From a virus, in the IMG/VR virus record IMGVR_UViG_3300021170_000006, positions 1-34,613 of that record: a stretch of DNA of 34,613 nucleotides. One strand, written 5' to 3'. A program made the translations under genes and the position numbers. This document shows positions 5,506-14,963 of the stretch, piece after piece (position 1 is the stretch's first letter; the number at the start of each line of letters is the position of its first letter). The notes beneath the pieces are model-generated. The model made no database searches. It saw only the letters and a list, made by a program, of their open reading frames with translations, and was not told where the DNA came from.

Positions 5506-5820
5506 ATGAGTTTTTCAATGCCCCTCCAAGATGATTTAACCATTAACGGGTATAAGCTTATTTGTACTTCTTGTGGTTGTCCTGAACAATATGAAGTTTT
5601 TAAGGACGATAAACAGGTAGGTTATTTAAGACTAAGGGGAGGGGTGTTTAGGATAGATTACCCTGATATTGATGGTTTTAAACTTTATGAAAAAATTTTT
5701 GATGGAGAATTGTACAAAGGAAATTTTGAAGATGAAGAAAGGGCTTACTATTTGTCCCTAGCGATTTATTTTATTGAATCGATGATAAGGATAGAAAATG
5801 AAAAATCAAAAAGCAGCTAA
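5506..5820 (+). CDS. Conserved-looking phage hypothetical protein
   Basis: A 104-residue protein with a compact beta-rich first half: L-I-C-T-S-C-G-C-P-E-Q-Y-E-V-F, then Q-V-G-Y-L-R-L-R-G-G-V-F-R-I-D-Y-P. I recall similar small proteins in other phages with a C-P-E-Q-Y-x-V-F ... V-G-Y-L-R-L-R core, always of unknown role. Three clustered Cys could bind a metal, but a fourth ligand is not obvious. The 3' end overlaps the next gene by 23 bases. Confidence 0.7.
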   Translation: MSFSMPLQDDLTINGYKLICTSCGCPEQYEVFKDDKQVGYLRLRGGVFRIDYPDIDGFKLYEKIFDGELYKGNFEDEERAYYLSLAIYFIESMIRIENEKSKSS

Positions 5821-6043
5821 TGAATTTACCGTAGGTGAGCTTATAGACCATTTAAGGAATTTTCCTTATGAACTTCCTATTGCATTTTGCGATGTTGATA
5901 TTGCTGGTGATTGGTCTATTTATTTTGATGAAGAAAGTCCAGAAAAATCGGTATTCCCCAGCTATGAGGCATTTGAGGTTTGGGATAATGAAAATCACGG
6001 AGTGAAGTTATTGACAGTAAGGATTCCAAAGTTAGAGATTTAA
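5798..6043 (+). CDS. Small protein of the V-G-E-L-I family (copy 1)
   Basis: An 81-residue acidic protein. Residues 11-30 read T-V-G-E-L-I-D-H-L-R-N-F-P-Y-E-L-P-I-A-F, the core motif repeated in five other small genes of this region (6263, 6734, 7010, 7179, 7353). Short phage proteins with this helix-F-P-strand pattern are common; their function is unknown. AAGGATAG precedes the ATG. The 3' end overlaps the helix-turn-helix gene in another frame. Confidence 0.75.
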   Translation: MKNQKAANEFTVGELIDHLRNFPYELPIAFCDVDIAGDWSIYFDEESPEKSVFPSYEAFEVWDNENHGVKLLTVRIPKLEI

Positions 6044-6294
6044 AAAAAATTAATGATGTTTTAGAAAAATATGGTTTATTTATTGATTCTAATTTTTATA
6101 TACGCGGATTAGAAAATTTTTACAAAAAAAGATCTTTTGAAATGTATCAAAAACACAAAAATGGGATGAAAATAAAGGACATAGCAAAAGAATATGGAAT
6201 TAGTTACGGAAGAGCATATAAAATCATTTCAAGAAGATTTAGAAAAGATGAGAGGGAATTCAATGAAAGTTGGAGAATTAAAAAAAATTCTTAA
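6010..6294 (+). CDS. Helix-turn-helix protein with unclear start (ATT 6010 or ATG 6142)
   Basis: An open frame from 5992 to the TAA at 6292-6294 encodes a protein-like sequence ending in a helix-turn-helix (M-K-I-K-D-I-A-K-E-Y-G-I-S-Y-G-R-A-Y-K-I), probably a DNA-binding regulator. No ATG, GTG or TTG lies in frame before ATG 6142, which would leave 50 residues and has a poor ribosome site. An ATT at 6010 has CGGAG seven bases upstream and would give 94 residues, including a plausible helical region (L-E-K-Y-G-L-F-I-D-S-N-F-Y-I-R-G-L). The gene overlaps its neighbours on both sides. The function is inferred from the motif alone. Confidence 0.5.
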   Translation: MDSKDSKVRDLKKINDVLEKYGLFIDSNFYIRGLENFYKKRSFEMYQKHKNGMKIKDIAKEYGISYGRAYKIISRRFRKDEREFNESWRIKKNS

Positions 6295-6505
6295 TAATTT
6301 TGATGATAATTTTACAGTTATGTATACACCAACCATGAAACTTTACATAATGGAAATTAAAAAAATAGTTTGTGATAATGAAACTCACACAGCTGTTTTG
6401 TATAAGGGAGAGCTAGCTGTTTTGGATAAGGGAGAGACAAAGGGAGAGACAGCTGTTTTGTATAAGGGAGAGATTGATCTTTCTAAATCATTTTTTAGTG
6501 ACTAA
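6263..6505 (+). CDS. V-G-E-L family small protein (copy 2) with internal repeats
   Basis: I chose ATG 6263 (80 residues), which has GAGAGGGAA six bases upstream; an in-frame ATG at 6194 would add 23 residues inside the helix-turn-helix gene. The N-terminus, M-K-V-G-E-L-K-K-I-L-N-N-F-D-D-N-F-T-V-M, matches the family core. Residues about 43-70 contain A-V-L-Y-K-G-E, A-V-L-D-K-G-E, T-K-G-E and A-V-L-Y-K-G-E, encoded by a DNA minisatellite (6389-6472). Confidence 0.7.
   Translation: MKVGELKKILNNFDDNFTVMYTPTMKLYIMEIKKIVCDNETHTAVLYKGELAVLDKGETKGETAVLYKGEIDLSKSFFSD
6389..6472 (+). repeat. Minisatellite inside the 6263 gene
   Basis: A 24-base block is identical at 6389-6412 and 6449-6472. A near copy (GCTGTTTTGGATAAGGGAGA) starts at 6416, and a 12-base partial unit (ACAAAGGGAGAG) lies between. 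The unit lengths are multiples of three, so the frame is preserved. This is typical of slipped-strand expansion. Confidence 0.8.
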
Positions 6506-6520
6506 AATACACAGGGGAAA

Positions 6521-6558
6521 GTGTAATTTACCATAATGCACATTATACAACTTTTTTT
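6521..6558 (+). terminator. Probable terminator between convergent genes
   Basis: A 7-bp stem GTGTAAT (6521-6527) / ATTATAC (6542-6548), one G-U pair, is followed by AACTTTTTTT. It lies in the 65-base gap between the + strand gene ending at 6505 and the - strand gene ending at 6571. The stem is AT-rich, so its strength is uncertain. Confidence 0.5.
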
Positions 6559-6570
6559 GAAGCACGTTTT

Positions 6571-6741
6571 TTAATTGTCAACTTCTTTCGTATTCATTTC
6601 ATGACCTAAAATACGATATGCAATTTCAAGAGCTTTTAATCTCTCTTCGGTCGGTTTGTCTCTTGTTTTGTATATAACATATTTAGCTAGATGTTGTATT
6701 TCTTTCCATGCAATAACAAGAGATTTCTCATCATTAGTCAT
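6571..6741 (-). CDS. 56-residue helical hypothetical protein
   Basis: Starts at ATG 6741 within ATGACTAA, overlapping the stop of the upstream gene by eight bases, and ends with TAA at 6571-6573. It is all helical and highly charged (A-W-K-E-I-Q-H-L-A-K-Y-V-I-Y-K, then E-E-R-L-K-A-L-E-I-A-Y-R-I-L-G). Last gene of the - strand operon. No family recognised. Confidence 0.65.
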   Translation of the reverse strand: MTNDEKSLVIAWKEIQHLAKYVIYKTRDKPTEERLKALEIAYRILGHEMNTKEVDN

Positions 6742-6973
6742 CTATCTTAAAATCTCCAAACCTATGCAATAAATTTAGGGCGTCTTTTAGATTATAATAA
6801 TAATCCGACACAGATTTATCTTCACCAGATGGTGAATGGAGCTGTCCTATAGCCACTAACTGATTTCCATCAATTTGATCATCTATTAACTCTGATAACC
6901 AAGTCATGACGGGCGTATCTGGATCTGCATGTATAAGAATTTCAATTAATTTTTTTACTGTGAGTGTTTTCAT
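6734..6973 (-). CDS. V-K-K-L-I family small protein (copy 3)
   Basis: A 79-residue protein whose start, L-T-V-K-K-L-I-E-I-L-I-H-A-D-P-D-T-P-V-M, matches the family core (T-V-x-x-L-I, then P-x-D-x-P-V). The second half is acidic and ends F-K-I-D-D. The ribosome site is poor; a 36-base gap (6974-7009) with the 3' part of a 13-codon relict ORF separates it from the upstream gene. Unknown function. Confidence 0.75.
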   Translation of the reverse strand: MKTLTVKKLIEILIHADPDTPVMTWLSELIDDQIDGNQLVAIGQLHSPSGEDKSVSDYYYNLKDALNLLHRFGDFKIDD

Positions 6974-7009
6974 CGTTAAGTCAAATTTAAACAGATTTCT
7001 TCAAATTGG

Positions 7010-7186
7010 TTAGTCATCTTTTATTCTTTCTATAACAACCCACCTCACATCCCCCTCAGATTCTTCAATAACATCCCCGGCCAAATCTAGAATTTCATCA
7101 TTAATTTCCATATGAACAGGTAGGTTTTTATTAAACTTTTTTAGTTTTGTTATTAACTCGCCTACATTTATAATTTGGTTAGTCAT
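7010..7186 (-). CDS. V-G-E-L-I family small protein (copy 4)
   Basis: A 58-residue protein: M-T-N-Q-I-I-N-V-G-E-L-I-T-K-L-K-K-F-N-K, then N-L-P-V-H-M-E-I. Start and stop each lie in an ATGACTAA overlap module shared with the neighbouring frames. Acidic second half, ending W-V-V-I-E-R-I-K-D-D. Unknown function. Confidence 0.75.
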   Translation of the reverse strand: MTNQIINVGELITKLKKFNKNLPVHMEINDEILDLAGDVIEESEGDVRWVVIERIKDD

Positions 7187-7352
7187 CATCTACCGTCAAA
7201 TATACCCGTTTCTCATCACCAATATTATAACTATATACATCTGTAATGGCATACATACCAGCTGGATCACGGGTATTATAACTACAGCATGCCTCTATTT
7301 TTGCATCAGACGGAAATTGTAATAGCTCGGTTATGAGCTGTTTAACGGTCAT
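7179..7352 (-). CDS. V-K-Q-L-I family small protein (copy 5)
   Basis: A 57-residue protein beginning M-T-V-K-Q-L-I-T-E-L-L-Q-F-P-S-D-A-K-I-E, the best match to the family core. A Cys pair follows (A-C-C-S-Y), and the end is acidic (T-V-D-D-D). The ATG at 7352 directly follows the stop of the upstream gene (7353). The stop overlaps the next start in an ATGACTAA module. Confidence 0.78.
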   Translation of the reverse strand: MTVKQLITELLQFPSDAKIEACCSYNTRDPAGMYAITDVYSYNIGDEKRVYLTVDDD

Positions 7353-7544
7353 TTAAGACAACAATATAATTTTTTCCATACGCTCTTGCATGGGATATTG
7401 ATAATTATCGGATGGAAAATCTACTTCTATTAAGTCTACCGTAAATTCCACATCATTTTCATAATCCCCTTGGGGGACAAAATAACAAACTTCTAGATCC
7501 GGAGGAAATTTAGCTAGCTGCTCTTGAACCATCTTGTTTTTCAA
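7353..7544 (-). CDS. V-Q-E-Q-L family small protein (copy 6)
   Basis: A 63-residue acidic protein: residues 5-18 are M-V-Q-E-Q-L-A-K-F-P-P-D-L-E, followed by V-C-Y-F-V-P-Q-G, which keeps the L...F-P-x-D-L-x-V pattern. I chose TTG 7544 because AGAGGT is at the right distance and it overlaps the upstream stop (TTGA); ATG 7532 is the alternative. Confidence 0.7.
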   Translation of the reverse strand: MKNKMVQEQLAKFPPDLEVCYFVPQGDYENDVEFTVDLIEVDFPSDNYQYPMQERMEKIILLS

Positions 7545-7912
7545 TTTTTACCTCTTAATAGAGTTGTTATAGCGGAATCCTCAGTCTTTCTTACAAATTT
7601 ACTAAAATTTATTATATTTTCGCCCTGCATTAACTGAGATTTTTTTTCAGCTTCCATAGCTTCTAAAAATAGAAGATGTATATATTGCGCGTACATAAAT
7701 CCAGGGTAAGCGTCTTGTAATGGCACTAAGTCGTCATGAGCGGGTCCATAACAGCTATTCGTATACCGGGCAAGAAGATTATAAATTTGGTCATAATGAA
7801 AGCATTTCTTCATTTGAAAAAGACCGTCCTGGAAAGATAATGCATGATTTGCCAAAATATTGATTTTGTTATGAAGCCTATGCATTTCCTTACTGTTAAT
7901 ATCCATTTCCAT
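7541..7912 (-). CDS. 123-residue hypothetical protein, first gene of early - operon
   Basis: I chose ATG 7912, preceded by AAGGGGTG at good distance and downstream of the promoter at 7940-7968. An in-frame TTG at 7951 would begin inside the promoter -10 region and is rejected. The protein is helical, with N-K-I-N-I-L-A-N-H-A-L-S-F-Q-D and M-Y-A-Q-Y-I-H-L-L-F-L-E-A-M-E. No family recognised. It heads an operon of six overlapping small genes transcribed toward 6571. Confidence 0.72.
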   Translation of the reverse strand: MEMDINSKEMHRLHNKINILANHALSFQDGLFQMKKCFHYDQIYNLLARYTNSCYGPAHDDLVPLQDAYPGFMYAQYIHLLFLEAMEAEKKSQLMQGENIINFSKFVRKTEDSAITTLLRGKN

Positions 7913-7939
7913 TTGTACACCCCTTGTTTTTATAGGGCA

Positions 7940-7968
7940 ATCGTAACCCAAGGTAATTAAGCCGTCAA
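7940..7968 (-). promoter_or_regulatory. Sigma70-type promoter for the - strand small-gene operon
   Basis: On the - strand TTGACG (7968-7963), a 17-base spacer and TACGAT (7945-7940) fit the sigma70 consensus well (5/6 and 4/6). Transcription would start near 7933, about 20 bases before the ATG at 7912. This suggests host RNA polymerase drives the early small genes. Confidence 0.72.
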
Positions 7969-8701: not shown

Positions 8702-8776
8702 TGGCTCCCCGAGACGGGATCGAACCGCCGACCTAATGGTTAACAGCCATTTGCTCTACCTCTGAGCTATCGGGGA
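8702..8776 (-). tRNA. tRNA-Asn (GUU), CCA encoded
   Basis: A full cloverleaf can be drawn on the - strand: acceptor TCCCCGA/TCGGGGA, D stem GCTC/GAGC, anticodon stem AATGG/CCATT around loop CTGTTAA (anticodon GTT), T stem GGCGG/CCGTC (one G-U) around TTCGATC, discriminator G and encoded CCA. All stems pair, so it should be functional. It overlaps the last seven codons and stop of the CDS at 8756-9016, on the same strand. Phage tRNAs may offset codon bias or host tRNA cleavage; a tRNA can also be an integration site, but no integrase is seen. Confidence 0.95.
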
Positions 8777-9498: not shown

Positions 9499-10107
9499 TT
9501 AAGCGGCACTTCTAGAGACCTTTTTAGCGTATAACTTTCTGCTTAAAAATATTGCGGCCTCTTCGTATTTATCCTTAGGCAAATCCTCTAAGCTTTTTAT
9601 TCCATAATGCTTTAAAAAGTTATCGTGGGTTTTTGGATCCCCTAGCTCATTAATTTTATCCTGTAGATCAATTTTATGATCTAAGTCAATCTTTTCTATC
9701 TTTTTATCAATCTCCTCTTTATCGACGGCCGCGTCATTATCAGTCTGGGTAATGCCCCCCATAGCTGCCAATCCGTAGCGTCTAGCGTAGGTAATTACAG
9801 ATCCAATAGATTGAGCTAAGCTCATGCCCTTTCCTTTTTCAACACCCATTTCTATTGTTGAACTAATCCACTGTCCTGATGAATGTATGAAGACAGTTTC
9901 TAATCTTACTTTTTCCTGATCAAAACCAGGCAACTGAACAACGGCGATCCCATATTTTGATAAAAGAGGTCTTAATATATCTAAAACACCCGATAGCTCA
10001 GCGTAGTTATATCCATAGCCCTTCTTATTTTTATGTGCATCGACAACCTCACCTTGCAATTTAGAGAGGGCGGCAGCCAATTCGTTAATATGCTCTGACT
10101 TTTCCAT
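9499..10107 (-). CDS. erf: ERF-family single-strand annealing protein
   Basis: A 202-residue protein with the ERF superfamily signature: K-G-Y-G-Y-N-Y-A-E-L-S-G-V-L-D early, then R-L-E-T-V-F-I-H-S-S-G-Q-W, and G-S-V-I-T-Y-A-R-R-Y-G-L-A-A-M (about residues 102-116), followed by D-N-D-A-A. P22 Erf is the reference: a ring-forming single-strand annealing recombinase that promotes genome circularisation and recombination. The C-terminal third is charged and helical. The ATG overlaps the upstream stop by one base (TAATG). No partner exonuclease is obvious; the nuclease at 12488 is of resolvase type. Confidence 0.9.
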   Translation of the reverse strand: MEKSEHINELAAALSKLQGEVVDAHKNKKGYGYNYAELSGVLDILRPLLSKYGIAVVQLPGFDQEKVRLETVFIHSSGQWISSTIEMGVEKGKGMSLAQSIGSVITYARRYGLAAMGGITQTDNDAAVDKEEIDKKIEKIDLDHKIDLQDKINELGDPKTHDNFLKHYGIKSLEDLPKDKYEEAAIFLSRKLYAKKVSRSAA

Positions 10108-12487: not shown

Positions 12488-12889
12488 ATGAGAATTTACA
12501 CTCGCAAAGTCTCTAAACAATCTCAAGGAAAGCGGTCTGATCTTAATGACAAATATTTTCGATCATCATGGGAAGCTAACTATGCAAGAATTCTTAATTT
12601 TCTCCAAAGAAACAAACAAATCCATAAATGGGAGTATGAGCCTGATACTTTTTGGTTTGAAAAGATAAAACGAGGGACGCGCTCTTATACCCCTGATTTC
12701 AAAATATGGGATAAGGAAGATTCCGAGCCCCATTACATTGAAATAAAGGGATGGATGGATACGACTAGTCAGACAAAGTTAAGGCGTATGAAAAAATACT
12801 TTCCTCACATAAAGGTTACCTTAATTCAACAGAGAGAATACAACACTTTAAAGCGGCAAATGAAAGGATGGATTAGAAATTGGGAATGA
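12488..12889 (+). CDS. T7 endonuclease I-like PD-(D/E)XK nuclease
   Basis: A 133-residue nuclease. The candidate active site is E29 (S-S-W-E-A-N-Y-A-R), D70 in Y-T-P-D-F, and E85-x-K87 in Y-I-E-I-K-G-W. This order and the Y-T-P-D-F ... E-x-K-G spacing match phage T7 endonuclease I, which cuts Holliday junctions and other branched DNA to resolve recombination and replication intermediates. The size also fits (T7: 149 residues). The stop overlaps the next gene's ATG (ATGA). It may partner ERF functionally. Confidence 0.82.
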   Translation: MRIYTRKVSKQSQGKRSDLNDKYFRSSWEANYARILNFLQRNKQIHKWEYEPDTFWFEKIKRGTRSYTPDFKIWDKEDSEPHYIEIKGWMDTTSQTKLRRMKKYFPHIKVTLIQQREYNTLKRQMKGWIRNWE

Positions 12890-13344
12890 ATGAAGTTTTT
12901 GATAACGTCAAAATTATATATGACCACAATATTTTAATTATTAACAAAAAGGATATTTACCTACGCCCGAAAGAAATGGATATTTTCTCTATTGTTTATG
13001 ATAAAAAAGGCATTCCCGTTAGATTGGAAACAATTGTTCAGGCTATTTGGGGGAGATTAGAGGGAATGAATTCAATAAATTCCTTGCAAGTTCATATTAA
13101 CAATATCAATAGAAAAACTCGTCCCCATGGAATTTCTTTACAGAATATACGAGGCCGGGGTTATAAGATCGCGGAAACTCGTCCGTCTGGTAAGGACGTA
13201 ACTAATGAGATTGTTGAGATAAATGGAGAGAAAAAAACCGCTAGAGAATGGGCGACGCTATATGGGGTAGCAATATCCACTCTTTATAGCACCTATTCTC
13301 GTAGAAAGCCCATAGAACATTGTTTTAGAAAACTAGCATCGTAG
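12886..13344 (+). CDS. OmpR/PhoB-type winged-helix regulator with extra helix-turn-helix
   Basis: A 152-residue DNA-binding protein. Residues about 22-96 follow the Trans_reg_C winged-helix pattern: L-R-P-K-E-M-D-I-F-S-I-V-Y, then V-Q-A-I-W-G, V-H-I-N-N-I-N-R-K-T-R, and I-R-G-R-G-Y-K-I at the end. There is no receiver domain, so activity is not phosphorylation controlled. Residues about 108-148 form a second predicted helix-turn-helix (A-R-E-W-A-T-L-Y-G-V-A-I-S-T-L-Y). I chose ATG 12886, which overlaps the nuclease stop; TTG 12880 is less likely. A late-gene activator or repressor is plausible, since it precedes the packaging and structural genes. Confidence 0.78.
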   Translation: MNEVFDNVKIIYDHNILIINKKDIYLRPKEMDIFSIVYDKKGIPVRLETIVQAIWGRLEGMNSINSLQVHINNINRKTRPHGISLQNIRGRGYKIAETRPSGKDVTNEIVEINGEKKTAREWATLYGVAISTLYSTYSRRKPIEHCFRKLAS

Positions 13345-13618: not shown

Positions 13619-13748
13619 AATTAACTCCCAATGCCATCTAATTAAATTATGGTTAATTGTTTTTTAAGTTTCAAGTGTTTTTATTAATTGTGTTTTATTA
13701 AAATTTAAGGTTATTTCTAGTTAATATAGAGAAATTAAGGAAAGTTTG

Positions 13749-14963
13749 ATGACTATAAAATGGGAAGAGCGCGAAGTTCAAATTAAAGATCTTAAGGATT
13801 ATGAGCGTAACCCTCGTCGTATAAACAAAGATCAATTCGAAAATCTCGTGAGATCCCTTAAAGAGGATGGTTATCACCAAAGGTTAATCGTCAATGAGGA
13901 TGGAACTATTATTGGTGGCCATCAGCGTAAAAGAGCTTTATTGGAAGCCGGATTTAAACCATCGGATAAGATCAAGGTTTTAACCCCTCTAGATCCTTTA
14001 TCACTTGAAGATTTTAAGAGGATAAATATCCGAGATAACCTTCCCTATGGTGAATATGATATGGATATGCTCGCTGCTGATTTTGATATTGATGAGTTGG
14101 TGGATTGGGGTATGGCTCCAGAGATGTTTCCTGATTTTGAAAAAATAGGATCTGAGGGTTTAACGGATGATGATGCTGTTCCTGAAACACCTAAAGATCC
14201 AATAACAAAAATTGGTGATGTATACGTCCTTGGTAACCATAGGCTTATGTGCGGGGATTCAACGAGTATGGATGCTATTGAAAAGCTTATGGATGGGCAA
14301 AAAGCCGATATGGTATTTACCGATCCTCCTTATGGAATATCACTAGATACAGATTATACTAGATTTGGTTCCACAAAATCGGTTAAGAGCTTAACCTTCT
14401 GCAAAAGTAAGAGATACGAATACGAAAAAGTAATTGGTGATAATGATGATTTTAAGAGCGAATTAATTACTACCATATTTGCCATTTTTTCTAATTGTAA
14501 GGAAATATTCATCTGGGGTGCCGATTATTTTATTGATCTTATCCCATTTTATAAAGAAGGATCGTGGGTTGTTTGGGATAAGAGAATCGATGAAAATCTA
14601 GATAAGGTTCAAGGTAATACATTCGAATTATGTTGGAGCAAACAAAAACATAAGAGACTTATAGCTCGAATTCTTTGGTCAGGACTAAATGGGATGGATA
14701 AAAATACATCAACAGGTGATGAGGGATTTAGGAGACATCCTACTCAAAAACCCACAAAACTTATAGAGTGGTTCTTTTCTCAATGGGGAAAACCAAATGA
14801 TAATGTGGTAGATCTCTTCGGCGGCTCCGGCTCTACGCTCATAGCTTGCGAAAAGACTAACCGTAAATGCTTTATGATGGAAATATCTCCACATTACTGC
14901 GATGTTATAGTAAAAAGGTGGGAAGATTATACCGGAAAGAAAGCTGAACTTGTTAATCCATAG
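13749..14963 (+). CDS. DNA methyltransferase with N-terminal ParB-like domain
   Basis: A 404-residue protein. Residues about 8-125 form a ParB/sulfiredoxin-like domain (E-R-N-P-R-R-I, I-I-G-G-H-Q-R-K-R-A). Residues about 155-400 form an N6-adenine or N4-cytosine methyltransferase with motif IV D-P-P-Y (192-195) before motif I D-L-F-G-G-S-G-S-T (about 355-363), the beta-class order, preceded by R-H-P-T-Q-K-P. It would transfer a methyl group from S-adenosylmethionine to DNA, probably protecting phage DNA. No partner restriction nuclease is seen. ParB-MTase fusions are common in phages. AAGGAAAG precedes the ATG. Confidence 0.92.
   Translation: MTIKWEEREVQIKDLKDYERNPRRINKDQFENLVRSLKEDGYHQRLIVNEDGTIIGGHQRKRALLEAGFKPSDKIKVLTPLDPLSLEDFKRINIRDNLPYGEYDMDMLAADFDIDELVDWGMAPEMFPDFEKIGSEGLTDDDAVPETPKDPITKIGDVYVLGNHRLMCGDSTSMDAIEKLMDGQKADMVFTDPPYGISLDTDYTRFGSTKSVKSLTFCKSKRYEYEKVIGDNDDFKSELITTIFAIFSNCKEIFIWGADYFIDLIPFYKEGSWVVWDKRIDENLDKVQGNTFELCWSKQKHKRLIARILWSGLNGMDKNTSTGDEGFRRHPTQKPTKLIEWFFSQWGKPNDNVVDLFGGSGSTLIACEKTNRKCFMMEISPHYCDVIVKRWEDYTGKKAELVNP

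What the first reader, a model, noticed from the sequence alone, without database searches (positions are those of the whole stretch)
5798..7544. Six diverged copies of one tiny protein family on both strands
Genes at 5798, 6263 (+) and 6734, 7010, 7179, 7353 (-) share an N-terminal helix and strand core: V-G/K-x-L-I/K-x-x-L, then F/A-P/D-x-D/N-x-x-V. The tails differ completely. A shared core with variable tails, amplified in an early region, suggests a family of binding adaptors, for example against host defences or targets.
Basis: partly seen in the sequence, partly recalled or inferred. Interest (0 to 1): 0.7.

Follow-up and report, generated by a model that had tools for sequence, protein, structure and literature searches.

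The report
Small phage proteins sharing one core
Six tiny neighbouring genes in an unclassified phage encode proteins that start with the same helix-and-strand core but end differently; the same core, never named or studied as far as I could find, sits at the start of small proteins in phages of many unrelated bacteria, usually one per phage.

Summary
A profile built only from cores of other viruses' proteins ranks the six window ORFs 1st to 6th of 17,751 ORFs. Three are secure (7010, 7179, 5798); three are probable (7353, 6263, 6734). The core, about 23 residues ([TK]V-x-E-L-I-x-x-L-x-x-[FLYM]-P-x-D-x-x-V), begins at or near the start codon. It is widespread: hypothetical proteins of Mycobacterium, Gordonia, Rhodococcus, Streptomyces, Rhizobium, Vibrio, Lactobacillus, Pseudomonas and Bacteroides phages carry it, spread over more than ten PHROGs of unknown function. 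No accepted Pfam, NCBIfam, PADLOC or PDB match was found. Most records carry one copy; this window carries six, one other contig five in tandem. The six are old: each core scores better against some other phage's core than against its neighbours. Short DNA repeats link the tails of 5798 and 6263 and reveal a seventh, partial core copy at 6028, so pieces seem to have been exchanged locally. Conserved positions read as structural, with no catalytic signature, which favours small non-enzymatic binding domains. A distant member, Waterfoul gp72, is absent from a published list of growth-inhibiting genes. The defence-adaptor idea is plausible but untested.

The parts
5798..6043 (+). copy A, 81 aa; core 5825-5893 (FTVGELIDHLRNFPYELPIAFCD)
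   Evidence: third of 17,751 ORFs with a profile of other phages' cores (E 1.5e-3)
5978..5998 (+). tail segment of A (VWDNENH) repeated in the tail of B at 6368-6388, 19/21 nt, same reading frame
   Evidence: no 21-nt match of 19 or more in 150 dinucleotide shuffles
6028..6065 (+). partial seventh core copy (KVRDLKKIND), 30/38 nt identical to the start of B; in a frame that runs into a helix-turn-helix ORF (6142-6294) and has no usual start codon upstream
   Evidence: no 38-nt match of 29 or more in 150 shuffles; HTH_23 E 1.7e-5
6263..6505 (+). copy B, 80 aa (internal ATG of ORF 6194-6505); core 6263-6331
   Evidence: rank 5 with the 46-core profile (E 0.33), rank 23 with the 12-protein profile
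6380..6473 (+). in-frame tandem repeat in the tail of B (three units spaced 24 and 36 nt)
6734..6973 (-). copy C, 79 aa; core 6896-6964 (LTVKKLIEILIHADPDTPVMTWL)
   Evidence: rank 6 (8.4 bits, below the shuffle maximum) and rank 5 with the second profile (12.1 bits, above it)
7010..7189 (-). copy D, 59 aa; core 7103-7171 (INVGELITKLKKFNKNLPVHMEI)
   Evidence: rank 1 (E 1e-7); AlphaFold2 helix 9-17, strands 26-29 and 32-35, mean pLDDT 75
7179..7352 (-). copy E, 57 aa; core 7284-7352 (MTVKQLITELLQFPSDAKIEACC)
   Evidence: rank 2 (E 3e-6); phrog_5861 E 7e-4
7353..7544 (-). copy F, 63 aa, TTG start overlapping the upstream stop, AGAGG upstream; core 7476-7544 (MKNKMVQEQLAKFPPDLEVCYFV)
   Evidence: rank 4 (E 0.036)
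7541..7951 (-). gene directly upstream of F on the same strand, overlapping it by 4 nt; no known family
6571..6741 (-). small gene directly after C on the same strand, overlapping it; not a member
9499..10107 (-). Erf-like single-strand annealing protein gene on the same strand, upstream of C-F
   Evidence: phrog_155 E 1e-38

Best explanation
The six genes encode members of a widespread, unnamed family of small phage accessory proteins. Each member has a constant N-terminal unit (a capped amphipathic helix, a Pro-x-Asp turn and a first strand) that completes a small alpha-beta domain with member-specific loops and C-terminal strands. They most likely work as non-enzymatic binding domains: the core is scaffold, and the variable part binds a different host, rival-phage or phage partner in each copy. 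Shown: family membership (secure for three, probable for three), wide occurrence, position of the core at the protein start, different tails, old divergence of the six, traces of local segment exchange. Inferred: a folded domain in all six, binding as the activity, different targets for the copies, early expression.
For: Profiles of other viruses' cores find all six. The same core starts hypothetical proteins of phages of nine or more host genera (alignment). Conserved columns in 60 non-redundant members are T2, V3, E5, L6, I7, L10, P14, D16, V19, i.e. an S/T-x-x-E helix cap, one hydrophobic helix face, a turn and a strand start, with nothing resembling a catalytic set. AlphaFold2 gives helix then hairpin for 7010, with residues 11-30 at mean pLDDT 83-89. 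Some relatives are only 43-48 residues long. Synonymous differences are abundant between the five cores of locus L186 (68 synonymous against 59 identical codons at unchanged residues), so the protein core is kept while the DNA drifts. An unrelated contig carries five tandem copies. Waterfoul gp72 is absent from the list of 30 growth inhibitors although only genes 8 and 86 are named as failing the test (PMC9339283), so it is probably not a general poison in that assay.
Against: No binding partner, expression or phenotype is known for any member. The window model covers one protein at moderate confidence (pTM 0.47), and the model of a relative was poor (pLDDT 53), so a shared fold is not shown. 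Three copies (6263, 6734, 7353) are individually weak matches. Fold searches gave no significant match.
Confidence: 0.45

Rival explanations
1. The constant N-terminal segment is a docking tag that takes all members to one common partner (for example a host or phage machine), and the variable tail is the effector part.
For: The core lies at the very start of most members and is far more conserved than the rest; one cell could make six different tails on one tag.
Against: The strongly conserved positions are mainly hydrophobic or capping residues that a buried helix face needs, and the model places the helix before a hairpin. Some members have almost no tail left for an effector (43-48 aa).
Confidence: 0.2
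2. Passenger genes: small ORFs that persist in a tolerant region between two convergent gene groups, kept or decaying without important function.
For: Lowest GC of the phage at 6001-7000 (0.294); a partial copy without a usual start codon at 6028; Waterfoul gp72 without a listed growth phenotype (PMC9339283); of the 44 related records searched besides the window, only one has a clear copy.
Against: Six intact frames, mostly with overlapping start/stop junctions; the protein core is maintained across very distant phages and, in L186, through synonymous change.
Confidence: 0.2
3. Convergence: short amphipathic helix plus Pro-Asp turn patterns arose independently and the six are not related.
For: The core is only about 23 residues; several full-length pairs show no similarity; 6734 does not exceed shuffled sequences with one of the two profiles, nor 6263 with the other.
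Against: The external profile ranks the six on top of 17,751 ORFs; the core sits at the start codon in members of many phages; identities of 65-76% over the first 20-odd residues between different viruses (partly forced by the 8-residue search pattern).
Confidence: 0.08

Closest known systems
PHROG 5861, 18091 and 7217 (unknown function; with 6161, 10692, 11236, 4326, 19687, 14647, 20907 and others)
   Same: Same N-terminal core; 7179 matches phrog_5861 (E 7e-4) and 28 of the 44 proteins of alignment A4 match phrog_5861 at E <= 1e-3
   Different: Only 7179 reaches a PHROG below E 0.001, and over the first 44 residues; the other five match none at that level; these PHROGs are separate clusters and are not described as one family in anything I found
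Mycobacterium phage Waterfoul gp72 (homologue of SoSeph gp71, which is in phrog_7217)
   Same: Begins MTVGELIAKLRNVNPDLLV; small hypothetical protein in a region of small genes
   Different: Single copy in its genome, unrelated tail; covered by a published overexpression screen (PMC9339283)
Five-gene tandem array in IMG/VR contig 3300015242_000066 (locus L186)
   Same: Five small genes with the same core and different tails
   Different: All on one strand, and cores closer to each other (54% identity) than in the window (28%)
Pfam DUF6225 (PF19735)
   Same: Weak matches of several phage members over the core (up to 15.4 bits)
   Different: Below the curated cut-off of 26.5 bits; none of the six window proteins matches

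Membership tests
Unnamed TVxELIxxL-PxDxxV family (phrog_5861 / 18091 / 7217 group) | Core recognised by a profile that excludes the window | tested here: met
   six window ORFs rank 1-6 of 17,751; significant on their own only for 7010, 7179 and 5798
Unnamed TVxELIxxL-PxDxxV family (phrog_5861 / 18091 / 7217 group) | Core at or within 10 residues of the protein start, protein under about 110 aa | tested here: met
Unnamed TVxELIxxL-PxDxxV family (phrog_5861 / 18091 / 7217 group) | Common fold of the core | tested here: inconclusive
   helix-hairpin, pLDDT 75, one window protein only; relative, pLDDT 53
Pfam DUF6225 | Score above the Pfam gathering threshold (26.5 bits) | tested here: not met
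Anti-defence or anti-CRISPR proteins | Inhibits a defence system | not testable with these tools
   No assay; no significant sequence match to solved structures
Components of known defence systems | Match to a PADLOC model | tested here: not met
   no match up to E 1 for the six and three relatives

The most novel reading that the evidence does not exclude
Phages share a general-purpose mini-scaffold (helix-turn-strand core) on which they evolve and swap binding surfaces, and this phage keeps a mosaic set of six or seven of them, each aimed at a different host or rival factor.
Probability: 0.2. Interest if true: 0.75.

Novelty: new variant of a known kind. Interest (0 to 1): 0.45.

Why it matters
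If right, many unrelated clusters of phage 'hypothetical proteins' collapse into one family with a recognisable N-terminal signature, which makes them annotatable and testable together. Phages with five or six copies are the natural place to ask what the tails bind.

Tried and rejected
Direct tblastn of 5798, 7010 and 7179 in annotated phages gave no convincing full-length relative. The search for related loci with 7179 (viral) and 5798 (genomes) found nothing, and the six-way alignment was too diverged to scan with. The Erf and phrog_21607 neighbours did not lead to phages carrying the cluster. Foldseek on PDB and BFVD and VIA-align gave no significant match; hits such as Rof at E 5.9 are noise. 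Profile search of PDB sequences: best E 0.5. Pfam hits such as ARMET_C, Hfq and Spt5-NGN are single weak matches and were dismissed. Literature searches for the core as a peptide string, for DUF6225 and for the PHROG numbers returned no paper. A sample of 199 genomes of the Brevibacillus phylum gave only the seed genome at E <= 1e-5, so I do not treat the family as a common cellular one. Five other mycobacteriophages with published toxicity screens (Hammy, Girr, LeBron, Amelie, Adephagia) carry no copy, so their screens add nothing. Recent duplication as the sole origin of the cluster was rejected on core identities.

Full report
What is there. The window is a 34.6-kb virus record with terminase, portal, replication-initiation and Erf-like genes. 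Around 5.5-8 kb two groups of small genes converge. On the plus strand are 5506, A (5798) and B (6263); on the minus strand are 7541, F (7353), E (7179), D (7010), C (6734) and 6571, with overlapping or abutting junctions apart from 36 nt between D and C. Same-strand genes upstream of the minus group include Erf at 9499 (phrog_155, E 1e-38). Early expression of this region is an inference from that layout; promoter scans gave no clear excess over shuffles.

Is the shared core real? Over full length only A-D, A-E and D-E are convincing (shuffle p 3e-4, 1e-3, 4e-3). The 23-residue core is better: 10 of 15 core pairs have p < 0.05, while only one tail pair (A-B, p 0.05) does. In leave-one-out tests each left-out core is the first non-training hit among 15,486 ORFs. 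The cleanest test is a profile made from 46 cores of proteins outside the window. It ranks the six window ORFs 1 to 6 among 17,751 ORFs, with E 1e-7 (D), 3e-6 (E), 1.5e-3 (A), 0.036 (F), 0.33 (B) and 1.4 (C). The best of 19,900 shuffled window ORFs reaches 9.6 bits; C scores 8.4 with this profile but 12.1 (shuffle maximum 9.5) with a 12-protein profile, where B drops to 5.2. So D, E and A are secure, and F, B and C probable. Caveat: the outside proteins were collected with a bait derived from the window consensus, and the larger set with search patterns of which MTVAELIE was the productive one, so conservation at residues 1-8 of that set is inflated; positions 10 (L, 59 of 60), 14 (P, 50), 16 (D, 39) and 19 (V, 49) were not forced by that pattern.

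How widespread is it? The bait matched 64 annotated phage records, mostly from query residue 1 or 2, in phages of Mycobacterium, Gordonia, Vibrio, Rhizobium, Lactobacillus, Rhodococcus, Streptomyces, Sinorhizobium, Pseudomonas and Bacteroides among others; nearly all of the matched genes are 'hypothetical protein' (contexts). Single E-values there are weak (0.02-1) because the bait is short; the profile searches are the firmer evidence. Representatives fall into many PHROGs of unknown function that recognise one another's cores. Pfam, NCBIfam, PADLOC and PDB sequence searches gave no accepted family; DUF6225 is the nearest Pfam entry and stays below its cut-off. Of 36 virus records that carry the family, most have one copy, a few two or three, and one contig five; of the 12 annotated phages that supplied the profile, ten have one and two have two at E <= 0.01. 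Six in this window is the most I saw. Of 44 records related through the capsid or neighbouring genes, only one has a clear copy (some of these are fragments), so the genes look accessory.

How did the cluster arise? Cores inside the window are 28% identical on average against 33% to the outside set, and every one of the six has a better-scoring partner outside than inside (the outside set is larger and nearer the consensus, so this is a bias as well as a signal). They are therefore unlikely to be recent duplicates. Yet short DNA repeats exist at matching places: the tail segment VWDNENH of A and VCDNETH of B (19/21 nt, in frame), and 30/38 nt between 6028-6065 and the start of B at 6266-6303. 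Neither level was reached in 150 dinucleotide-preserving shuffles. The second repeat includes a run of A, so it is weaker than the count suggests. The 6028 element is a partial seventh core (KVRDLKKIND) in a frame that leads into a helix-turn-helix ORF and lacks ATG, GTG or TTG upstream. B's tail also holds an in-frame tandem repeat. Old divergence followed by local exchange of pieces is my reading of this.

How might it work? Conserved columns are T2-x-x-E5 (a helix-capping box), V3, L6, I7, L10 and a hydrophobic residue at 13 (one helix face), P14-x-D16 (turn) and V19 (strand). This looks like structure, not catalysis. AlphaFold2 predicts for D a helix at 9-17 and strands at 26-29 and 32-35 (mean pLDDT 75, pTM 0.47). 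A model of a longer relative was poor (pLDDT 53), though it too begins helix-strand. The model of D gave no significant PDB or viral fold match. Small acidic proteins (net charge -2 to -9) with a fixed core and differing remainder are best explained as binding domains; the targets are unknown.

Experimental hint. Waterfoul gp72 is a member (87% identical to SoSeph gp71). In the Waterfoul overexpression screen (PMC9339283) it is not among the 30 listed growth inhibitors, and only genes 8 and 86 are named as not obtained. I could not see the supplementary figure, so 'not toxic' is by omission. This argues against a general host poison and leaves counter-defence, phage-internal and passenger roles open.

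Verdict. The family is much wider than this phage and unnamed in the libraries searched. The functional claim stays an inference.

Noticed in passing
window 5990-6294 (+): A reading frame without ATG/GTG/TTG start (SEVIDSKDSKVRDLKKIND...) runs from a partial family core into a helix-turn-helix domain (HTH_23 E 1.7e-5 at 6142-6294). It may start at ATT, or be a decayed or fused gene.
   Followed up: partly
window 5506-5820 (+): Gene overlapping copy A belongs to phrog_21607 (E 7.5e-19); homologues in Acinetobacter, Rhizobium and Cronobacter phages are unknown or labelled 'F-box domain protein', a label I did not verify.
   Followed up: partly
window 7003-7023 and 7172-7192: The E-stop/D-start junction (GATGACTAACCAA) recurs just after the D stop, where a 13-codon remnant ORF MTNQFEEICLNLT follows; 18/21 nt, a level reached in 13% of shuffles.
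   Followed up: partly
window 13746-14963 (+): ParB-like N-terminal domain fused to a DNA methyltransferase (phrog_498 E 2e-82).
   Followed up: no
window 8702-8776 (-): tRNA-Asn gene (gtt anticodon) among small genes.
   Followed up: no
window 12880-13344 (+): Winged-helix response-regulator-type DNA-binding domain (Trans_reg_C, E 1.6e-9) in a phage protein; no receiver domain was matched in the same ORF.
   Followed up: no
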